This document shows positions 28,932 to 34,599 of a DNA stretch of 47,922 nucleotides, one piece after another. The notes under the pieces were generated by a model. It ran no database searches and was not told where the DNA came from. It was given only the letters and a program-made list of their open reading frames with translations. Location: positions 1 through 47,922 of IMG/VR virus record IMGVR_UViG_3300031652_000008; one strand, written 5' to 3'. How positions within the stretch are numbered: position 1 is the stretch's first letter; each line of letters begins with the position of its first letter. The DNA comes from a virus. The position numbers were made by a program, and so were the translations under genes.

Positions 28932-28957
28932 GAAAAAAGCCCGGACAAACCGGACTT
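28932..28957 (-). terminator. Terminator of the TIGR-Tas transcription unit
   Basis: On the minus strand AAGTCCGG pairs with CCGGGCTT (8 bp, one G-U) around the loop TTTGT, followed by six T. It lies after the downstream array and before the late promoter. The loop and part of the stem (GGTTTGTC) recur in the terL terminator at 30361-30390. Confidence 0.88.
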
Positions 28958-28974
28958 AATCATTAGGCGGTGGT

Positions 28975-29073
28975 GATTATCTTACAACGTCTGATTCACT
29001 TTTCCGCGATGGTTATCTTGACCTCATTGATTCATTTAGCCATTTTAGTTATCTTGGTTGCGATGATTCACTT
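28975..29073 (-). repeat. TIGR-like array 2 (downstream of tas)
   Basis: Six 9-base repeats start exactly 18 bases apart at 28975, 28993, 29011, 29029, 29047 and 29065. On the minus strand they alternate between type A (AAGTGAATC or AAATGAATC) and type B (AAGATAACC, AAGATAACT or AAGATAATC). Between them lie five 9-base spacers (minus strand, in transcript order): ATCGCAACC, AAAATGGCT, AATGAGGTC, ATCGCGGAA, AGACGTTGT. A-spacer-B-spacer makes a 36-base unit, as reported for TIGR guide RNAs. The spacers are mixed in base composition, unlike the AT-rich ones of array 1. The array follows the tas stop codon by ~30 bases and precedes a terminator. Confidence 0.88.
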
Positions 29074-29102
29074 AAGTTTTTAGTATATATTGCAAGTGAT
29101 GA

Positions 29103-30044
29103 TTAAAATTTCCATCCCCTTTCTTTTGGTGTGACAATCCCGGTATGACCGAGTTTTGCCTCAGGATATAAACAAGGTGTTTCTAATCCTTCCAAAGTTC
29201 TCCATACATACCACAAATCTGCAAGAAAATGCTTTATCATTTTTCGCATTGCGGCAAAATGCCTGTGATTAGGTTTAGTATCTTTCCACATACATTCAAT
29301 CAATTTACCTTGCGTGTTATTTGATTTTGTCATTTTCTCACTTACTGAATAATCCTGTTTGGCCCGGTTGTAAACCTCTGAATAAATGTTTTTATGTTTG
29401 ATGAAACTTCCTGCCATTGAAAATAAAACAGTCCTTAATGTTTTATTACCACCTCCCGAAACGCCTTTTTCATACCTCTTATGGCTTGGTTTATCGTATC
29501 CGCAATAGGCCCAAATACTAGAAGCGTACCGAGCTTTTTCAATTTCCAGATAAACCAACAAATAAGCTACTGAAATTTTCCCGACTGCCTTAATTTGCAG
29601 CGCCTTTTGTGCTATTTCCGGAGCGCCTTTTGATAAGTGTTTTTCAATCCGCTTATCAATCTTGTATAACTGCTTTTTCAATGCCGTAATACTTTCCAGT
29701 AAAAAATTCAATGTTTCTTCATCCATATCATCAGTGCGGCGTTTCATTGCCTTTATCCGGTTTTCGGCTCCAAGTTTCTGTTTCATAATCTGCTCCCTGG
29801 CATCAATTAATATTTTTAAGTTTTTATGCCAGTCATCCCTGTTTCGTAACGTTCCATGCCGTTTCATGTGCTCAACAGGATCGACAATACGGGTGTTTTT
29901 GTCAACGTAAATACCACCGTTTGCTTTTGGATTAATTCTGTCAGTATCAACTAATGACATTTCACCAGCTAATACTTTTCCAGATAATGCACATCTACCG
30001 TTTTGCTTTCTGGAAATCCTTTGTTTTAATTCTTTTTTTGCCAT
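29103..30044 (-). CDS. tasH: TasH-like RNA-guided DNA-binding protein (HNH + Nop/IS110-type domain)
   Basis: The 313-residue protein has an N-terminal HNH-like module (residues ~12-63: QNGRCALSGK, LVDTDRINPKANGG, YVDKNTRIVDPVEHMKRHG). A helical coiled stretch spans ~65-155, and a C-terminal domain (~155-300) resembles the Transposase_20 part of IS110 transposases and the Nop domain (KAVGKISVAYLLVYLEIEKA, then YCGYDKPSHKRYEKGVSGGG and TLRTVLFSMAGSFIKHK). There is no IS110 RuvC-like DEDD domain. Tandem 9+9 arrays lie on both sides. This combination is that of the TIGR-associated (Tas) proteins of the HNH class. The usual DH of the HNH core reads D35-R36, so the general-base His may be missing. 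Alternatives are an isolated IS110 derivative or a decayed homing protein, both less likely given the arrays. Confidence 0.85.
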   Translation of the reverse strand: MAKKELKQRISRKQNGRCALSGKVLAGEMSLVDTDRINPKANGGIYVDKNTRIVDPVEHMKRHGTLRNRDDWHKNLKILIDAREQIMKQKLGAENRIKAMKRRTDDMDEETLNFLLESITALKKQLYKIDKRIEKHLSKGAPEIAQKALQIKAVGKISVAYLLVYLEIEKARYASSIWAYCGYDKPSHKRYEKGVSGGGNKTLRTVLFSMAGSFIKHKNIYSEVYNRAKQDYSVSEKMTKSNNTQGKLIECMWKDTKPNHRHFAAMRKMIKHFLADLWYVWRTLEGLETPCLYPEAKLGHTGIVTPKERGWKF

Positions 30045-30071
30045 TTTGTACGATTTTAAATTTAACTTAAT

Positions 30072-30221
30072 GATTCACTTTATAGATATGGTTATCTTTT
30101 CCATACTGATTCATTTTTTGTTTTGGGTTATCTTTTTATATATGATTCACTTAATTTTTGTGATTATCTTAAGCAATTTGATTAACTTTAATTTTATGGT
30201 TATCTTTCAGCTTCTGATTCA
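30072..30221 (-). repeat. TIGR-like array 1 (upstream of tas)
   Basis: Nine 9-base repeats begin every 18 bases from 30072 to 30216 (the last is truncated to six bases). On the minus strand type A (AAGTGAATC, AAATGAATC, AAGTTAATC) alternates with type B (AAGATAACC, AAGATAATC). The eight 9-base spacers in transcript order are AGAAGCTGA, ATAAAATTA, AAATTGCTT, ACAAAAATT, ATATATAAA, CAAAACAAA, AGTATGGAA, ATATCTATA. The periodicity is exact, with no indels over 150 bases. The array ends 27 bases before the tas start codon and is preceded by an attenuator-like hairpin. The plus-strand reading frame through it is only an effect of the 18-base period. Confidence 0.9.
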
Positions 30222-30325
30222 AAAAAAGCCGCCTGGAAATCGCACAAACCAGACGGCAAAAACTAGAGAAATATCCTCCATAATGTGCGATTCTAACCTG
30301 CCTAAAAAAATCATGAAAAAACTTT
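30222..30325 (-). ncRNA. Leader RNA / attenuator of the TIGR-Tas unit
   Basis: Between the promoter and array 1, the minus strand has a terminator hairpin GCCGTCTGG/CCAGGCGGC (30257-30249 with 30236-30228) followed by seven T at 30227-30221. Its 12-base loop contains TGTGCGATT (30246-30238), exactly complementary to AATCGCACA at 30292-30284 upstream. The two pairings could form a pseudoknot or exclude each other, so the leader could either end transcription early, giving a ~100-base RNA, or allow readthrough into array and tas. Confidence 0.65.
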
Positions 30326-30331
30326 ACTCAA

Positions 30332-30363
30332 CGAAGATACAAAATAATTTTGACTTATGCAAA
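30332..30363 (-). promoter_or_regulatory. Promoter of the TIGR-Tas unit
   Basis: Minus strand: TTTG at 30363-30360, exactly 20 bases, TATCTTCG at 30339-30332 (one mismatch to TAnnTTTG). Its -33 element sits in the T-tract of the terL terminator. It gives the array-tas-array unit its own transcription, separate from the flanking late genes. Confidence 0.72.
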
Positions 30364-30390
30364 TAAAAACCCCCGGACAAACCAGGGGCC
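30361..30390 (-). terminator. Terminator after terL
   Basis: On the minus strand CCCCTGG pairs with CCGGGGG (one G-U) around TTTGT and is followed by TTTTTATTT. It ends the terminase transcript and overlaps the promoter of the TIGR-Tas unit. The ~50 bases between it and the terL stop contain nothing else recognised. Confidence 0.85.
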
Positions 30391-30441
30391 TTAGTATCAA
30401 CCTTAATTTATGAAAAAAATCCAGCTAAAAAGCTGAAAATA

Positions 30442-34303: not shown

Positions 34304-34519
34304 TTACCAACAGTCCTTATATAAATCACCAACCAATTCAATTACACCAGCAATCACACCCAATGGTATTGCCACTAAAGTAATTATCAATAACGCACCA
34401 CGCCTTAACCAATTTCGTTCTACTTTGTCTAATGGGTGCTTAAATTCATTCCAAAAACTACGCCTAACAACAGGTATAGTGCATTGCTCGTTTTGTTCTT
34501 TTTTACTATCTGTATTCAT
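34304..34519 (-). CDS. Small membrane protein, 71 residues
   Basis: One membrane helix (ALLIITLVAIPLGVIAGVIE) lies in the C-terminal half. The N-terminal part carries the VRRSFW segment shared with the gene downstream. Possibly a member of a cassette-like set of small genes. Role unknown. Confidence 0.55.
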   Translation of the reverse strand: MNTDSKKEQNEQCTIPVVRRSFWNEFKHPLDKVERNWLRRGALLIITLVAIPLGVIAGVIELVGDLYKDCW

Positions 34520-34599
34520 AATTCAAAGTTTTTATTTTGTTAATTAAGTTCGTGCTGTAAGGTCGCAACGACACCATACCCAAACCGTTAGCCGTCAGT

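What the first reader, a model, noticed from the sequence alone, without database searches (positions are those of the whole stretch)
28932..30390. Probable TIGR-Tas (TasH-type) RNA-guided DNA-targeting system inside the late region of a Bacteroidota phage
Seen: two arrays of alternating 9-base repeats and 9-base spacers, with exact 18-base period and so a 36-base A/B unit, flank a gene for a protein with an HNH-like N-terminus and an IS110/Nop-like C-terminus. The unit has its own promoter, leader and terminator. Known: TIGR-Tas systems, reported in 2025, pair such tandem interspaced arrays with Nop-domain proteins that may carry HNH (TasH) or RuvC (TasR) nucleases, and their guides are 36 nt with two 9-nt spacers. 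Inference: this is a phage-borne TasH with arrays on both sides, which could target competing phages, plasmids or host genes.
Basis: partly seen in the sequence, partly recalled or inferred. Interest (0 to 1): 0.95.

Follow-up and report, generated by a model that had tools for sequence, protein, structure and literature searches.

The report
Phage-borne TIGR-TasH RNA-guided nuclease locus
This phage carries a small RNA-guided DNA-cutting system of a kind described in 2025 (TIGR-TasH), with a guide array on each side of the gene; it is a clear new member of that family, but what it targets remains unknown.

Summary
ORF 29103-30044(-) is a TasH: NCBIfam TIGR_Tas_endo E=5e-36, 49% identity end to end to the characterised Salicola phage CGphi29 TasH, and an AlphaFold model (pLDDT 92) matching solved TasH-tigRNA-DNA structures at TM about 0.9, with no RuvC domain. 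Two same-strand arrays with an 18-nt period flank it, best read as 10-nt repeats plus 8-nt spacers (as in SpTIGR), not 9+9, giving 4+4 units. Thirty IMG/VR loci (26 distinct) encode relatives, every one with a linked array; the one genome scan found none. The cassette fills a 1.6-kb terL-portal gap that is about 96 bp in a distant relative, Polaribacter phage P12002L. Additions: a Bacteroidota-type promoter; an array leader whose terminator loop pairs over 9 nt with upstream RNA, recurring with different letters at two other (mutually related) loci; and sister phages sharing only 6 of 14 units, in the same order, with interior replacement. No targets were found in the phage itself or other TasH phages; hits in the wider virus collection look like chance. 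New member of a known kind; biological role unresolved.

The parts
29103..30044 (-). tasH gene, 313 aa: HNH (about residues 1-65), coiled coil (71-138), Nop/RNA-binding C-terminal part (142-313)
30071..30224 (-). TIGR array 1 (upstream of tasH): 4 units, spacer A/B pairs gaagctga/taaaatta, aattgctt/caaaaatt, tatataaa/aaaacaaa, gtatggaa/tatctata; begins with 5'-truncated edge TTTTGAATCA
28956..29109 (-). TIGR array 2 (downstream): 4 units, tcacttgc/aaaaactt (decayed loop AATATATACT), tcgcaacc/aaatggct, atgaggtc/tcgcggaa, gacgttgt/ccaccgcc; first edge overlaps the tasH stop codon, last edge 3'-truncated
28932..28957 (-). intrinsic terminator after array 2
   Evidence: 8-bp stem, T tail
30332..30363 (-). 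Bacteroidota-type promoter candidate TTTG-N20-TATCTTCG
   Evidence: sequence; consensus from established knowledge (-33 TTTG, -7 TAnnTTTG); consensus -7 boxes at the same place in L007 and L013
30221..30292 (-). leader element: arm a 30284-30292 (AATCGCACA), terminator-like hairpin 30228-30257 with loop a' 30238-30246 (TGTGCGATT) complementary to a, T run 30221-30227

Best explanation
A phage-encoded TIGR-TasH locus. One transcript from a promoter near 30332-30363 is expected to run through a structured leader, array 1, tasH and array 2 to the terminator at 28932 (inferred). The array RNA is cut at the edge repeats into 36-nt tigRNAs, each with two 8-nt spacers; a TasH dimer binds one tigRNA through the box motifs of the edge and loop repeats; spacer A pairs with one strand and spacer B with the other of a roughly 16-bp target; the two HNH domains nick both strands. 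These steps are reported for SpTasH and/or TaTasR in PMC12045711 and are carried over here by homology; none is shown in this phage. The purpose most likely is cutting DNA of other mobile elements or of cassette-free relatives; this last step is inference.
For: NCBIfam TIGR_Tas_endo above cut-off, and all 27 aligned members match it. 49% identity to SpTasH over 309 aa, which carries 36-nt tigRNAs and cuts DNA (PMC12045711). Model pLDDT 92.4; Foldseek best hits TasH-tigRNA-dsDNA 9w04 (TM 0.87-0.90), then TasR 9mty, then IS621. HNH residues D33, R36, N50 invariant and H59, H63 nearly so across 28 sequences, shared with SpTasH. Arrays far above chance, same 10+8 layout as SpTIGR and the relatives. 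Truncated first and last edges plus terminator as in the published description. No exact match of any unit to its own genome.
Against: No RNA or cleavage data. Targets not found. Array 1 spacers are AT-rich and some repeats differ from the consensus (AAGTTAATCA, AAGATAACCC; decayed first loop of array 2), so parts of the arrays may be degenerating. Published tests with TasR in E. coli saw no protection against phage or conjugation (PMC12045711).
Confidence: 0.93

Rival explanations
1. Same machine, different purpose: the cassette behaves like a free-standing homing element. TasH cuts the corresponding region of cassette-free phages during mixed infection and the cassette is copied in by repair, the arrays replacing a fixed recognition site.
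For: It sits in a 1.6-kb terL-portal gap that is about 96 bp in Polaribacter phage P12002L. In other phages TasH lies near conserved genes of the sort that often neighbour homing endonucleases (established knowledge): terL-portal (L033), minor head, DNA polymerase, helicase, primase, UvsX. The HNH part weakly resembles that of a group II intron maturase (6me0, E=0.0026).
Against: Units match the flanks of their own cassette hardly better than shuffled pairs (80 units with 3 or fewer mismatches against 65 expected), and there are no exact matches in other TasH phages. A homing enzyme needs one target, not 4 to 40 units. I annotated only large neighbours, so conserved genes are over-represented anyway.
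Confidence: 0.2
2. A TasH that no longer cuts: it binds DNA under tigRNA guidance and regulates genes.
For: The residue after the HNH aspartate, usually the catalytic histidine (D-H), is arginine here (D35-R36); one relative (L027) has lost D35, H59 and H63 yet keeps a 17-repeat array.
Against: SpTasH has the same D-R and is reported to cut in an HNH-dependent way (PMC12045711). The window protein keeps D33, D35, R36, N50, H59 and H63.
Confidence: 0.07
3. IS110-family transposase remnant with chance repeats.
For: Weak Pfam Transposase_20 hit and IS110 HMM hit below cut-off; the matching phage protein families are labelled transposase.
Against: N-terminus is HNH, not the DEDD RuvC of IS110; the Tas HMM scores far higher; arrays present at all relatives; chance excluded.
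Confidence: 0.01

Closest known systems
SpTIGR-TasH of Salicola phage CGphi29 (PMC12045711; PDB 9w04, 9vzx, 21kl and others)
   Same: HNH plus Nop effector, 49% identity, same fold; 10-nt edge and loop repeats with 8-nt spacers, 36-nt unit; phage, near head genes
   Different: Arrays on both sides here, only downstream in CGphi29 by my parse; repeats AAGTGAATCA/AAGATAACCA against AAGCGAGYCA/AAGACARCCA; AT-rich phage with Bacteroidota-type promoter; structured leader
TIGR-TasR (TaTasR, PDB 9mty)
   Same: Nop domain, dual-repeat array, dimer expected
   Different: RuvC instead of HNH; 9-nt spacers; about 22% identity in the structural alignment
IS110/IS621 bridge-RNA recombinases
   Same: Distant Nop-like RNA-binding part
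   Different: DEDD RuvC catalytic domain, bridge RNA, transposition; no such domain here

Membership tests
TIGR-TasH | Nop-domain effector of the Tas clade | tested here: met
   NF052498 124.6 bits against cut-off 100; Foldseek TasH/TasR
TIGR-TasH | N-terminal HNH nuclease domain | tested here: met
   beta-beta-alpha layout in the model, conserved D33/R36/N50/H59/H63 as in SpTasH; Pfam HNH itself is not hit by the window protein, only by 3 relatives
TIGR-TasH | Dual-repeat array: two alternating 8-12-nt repeats with short spacers, 36-nt unit | tested here: met
TIGR-TasH | Array begins and ends with truncated edge repeats, followed by a terminator | tested here: met
   TTTTGAATCA start, ATTTTAATCA over the stop codon, TAATGATTAA end, terminator
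TIGR-TasH | Processing to 36-nt tigRNAs bound by TasH | not testable with these tools
   needs small-RNA sequencing
TIGR-TasH | tigRNA-guided cleavage of both strands | not testable with these tools
   needs biochemistry
TIGR-TasH | Identifiable natural target (not a defining feature so far; none reported in PMC12045711) | tested here: inconclusive
   none beyond chance
IS110 transposase | DEDD RuvC domain | tested here: not met
CRISPR-Cas | One repeat of about 25-36 nt with similar-sized spacers | tested here: not met
   two alternating 10-nt repeats, 8-nt spacers

The most novel reading that the evidence does not exclude
The TasH cassette of these Bacteroidota-type phages is controlled by its own RNA switch: the leader can form either a terminator or a 9-bp pairing between the terminator's loop and an upstream arm. 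Too few bases separate that pairing from the closing stem for both to form fully, so the two would compete, turning array and nuclease on or off during infection. Alternatively the leader is a stand-alone small RNA that serves the TIGR system.
Probability: 0.25. Interest if true: 0.6.

Novelty: new member of a known kind. Interest (0 to 1): 0.42.

Why it matters
TIGR-Tas systems have a known effector mechanism but, in the paper read (PMC12045711), no known natural targets, no known way of gaining spacers and no described regulation. This locus, with the TasH loci gathered here, gives compact phage-borne examples, a candidate regulatory leader, and a sister-phage pair in which interior units are replaced while the order of the shared units is kept. 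Each bears on one of those open questions and can be tested.

Tried and rejected
Self-targets: none; best matches equal to scrambled controls. Targets in 1.03 Mb of TasH-phage DNA for 326 units: 0 exact, 39 one-mismatch against 28-41 in the control geometries and pairings. Targets near own cassette: 80 against 65 with 3 or fewer mismatches, too weak to claim. IMG/VR exact targets: 28, 25 and at least 120 hits for three units; no control scan was run. The large count is mostly gap 1 (83 of 120), which keeps the reading frame (my reading: a codon run for Asp-Val-Val-Gly-Gly-Gly), and the hits fall into 93 unrelated contexts. Rfam: nothing credible for the leader. Leader motif GGTTATAACCNTAAAG in IMG/VR: found with the loop pairing and terminator only at the TasH locus already known. 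The loop-upstream pairing was also looked for in L010 (7 bp, P=0.06) and L008 (6 bp, P=0.49): not significant. Portal and terL scans of IMG/VR found no close relative of this phage. Genome contigs gave no TasH, but that scan used two short peptide patterns only. PADLOC: no hit.

Full report
OBSERVATION. The region was read on both strands. The 313-aa ORF at 29103-30044(-) is flanked by two same-strand arrays with an exact 18-nt period. In the 47.9-kb window the longest run of 18-nt steps whose 10-mers match 36 nt later is 6; in 200 dinucleotide shuffles it is at most 2. The 9+9 reading is one base off: the first A of each repeat is nearly constant here and in relatives, giving 10-nt repeats (edge AAGTGAATCA, loop AAGATAACCA) and 8-nt spacers. 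Eight units in all, the first unit of array 2 having a degenerate loop repeat. The first edge of array 2 overlaps the stop codon of tasH (ATTTTAATCA), a feature shared with relatives such as L007, L008 and L010.

THE PROTEIN. NCBIfam NF052498 TIGR_Tas_endo, E=5.3e-36, above its cut-off; IS110 model below cut-off. BLASTP to the Salicola phage CGphi29 protein: 49% over 309 aa. That protein is the TasH of eight PDB entries. AlphaFold2 on 27 sequences: pLDDT 92.4. Foldseek: TasH-tigRNA-dsDNA 9w04 E=2e-29, TM 0.87-0.90; then TasR 9mty; then IS621. No RuvC domain. In the HNH part D33, R36 and N50 are invariant and H59 and H63 nearly so over 28 sequences. Where a canonical HNH has D-H this family has D-R or H-R (positions 35-36), including SpTasH (D-R), which is reported active (PMC12045711).

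RELATIVES. IMG/VR gave 30 loci, 26 distinct after removing near-identical copies (L002/L007, L008/L009/L035, L011/L012); all carry 18-nt-period arrays next to the gene. INPHARED holds one full-length relative, CGphi29, under two accessions; its other hits are partial. PLSDB gave only partial, IS110-like hits. One pattern-based scan of GTDB contigs found none, which is not proof of absence.

CONTEXT. The window is a phage: terL, portal, terminase small subunit, tape measure, DnaB helicase. Its nucleotide matches and many of its portal and terL relatives are phages of Bacteroidota. In Polaribacter phage P12002L terL and portal are about 96 bp apart; here the gap is 1.6 kb and holds the cassette. 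This supports insertion, though P12002L is only a distant relative (portal 26% identity). Neighbours of tasH that I annotated in other loci include terL-portal, portal/minor head, DNA polymerase (four loci), helicase, primase, UvsX and replication initiation genes. I picked large ORFs, so this is descriptive, not a test.

LEADER. Upstream on the minus strand lies TTTG-N20-TATCTTCG, close to the Bacteroidota consensus (established knowledge). Between it and array 1 is a 9-bp hairpin with a 7-T tail; its loop TGTGCGATT is complementary to AATCGCACA upstream. I noticed this first in the window, then looked at relatives: L007 (TTCTGCGAG/CTCGCAGAA) and L013 (TGTACGAGA/TCTCGTACA) have the same layout with different letters (shuffle P 0.0002, 0.0006, 0.0005; the first is post hoc). 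L007 and L013 come from related phages, so they are not fully independent. L010 and L008 were not significant. A scanner for the layout found 3 hits in 2 Mb of shuffled sequence and no other copy in the window. With one or two bases left between the paired loop and the closing strand, full pairing and the full stem look sterically incompatible (my inference), hence the switch idea.

TARGETS. Using A then the reverse complement of B, gap 0-2 (orientation inferred from the published 8-nt 3' overhangs), no unit has an exact match in its own genome or in the other TasH phages, and one-mismatch counts equal controls. Collection-wide exact hits are at a level that chance and coding bias can explain. 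So the biological role is open.

ARRAY CHANGE. In L019 and L021 (tasH DNA 92% identical) 6 of 14 units are shared with at most one base different, in the same order; the others differ, including replacements between shared neighbours, and one unit keeps spacer A while B differs. This does not look like the end-on growth of CRISPR arrays. It is one pair only.

VERDICT. Real, and a new member of a known kind.

Noticed in passing
L019 and L021, downstream arrays: Sister phages share 6 of 14 tigRNA units in order while interior units are replaced; relevant to how TIGR arrays change.
   Followed up: partly
L027:2983-3924: TasH relative that lost D35, H59 and H63 of the HNH motif yet keeps a 17-repeat array: possible natural nuclease-dead TasH.
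   Followed up: partly
L018, upstream array: Two adjacent units differ by one base (gcaaaaat/gaatcgaa and gcaaaaat/ggatcgaa): recent unit duplication.
   Followed up: no
L032:2036-2932: A ParB-like gene upstream of tasH; in the paper read, ParB-like genes were reported in operons with tasA.
   Followed up: no
window 34455-34589: 135 bp 88% identical to Polaribacter phages Freya, unlike the rest of the genome; partly overlaps a hypothetical protein there.
   Followed up: partly
window 30366-30391 and 30420-30437: Two further hairpins with T tails on the minus strand between terL and the leader, which may insulate the cassette from terL transcription.
   Followed up: no
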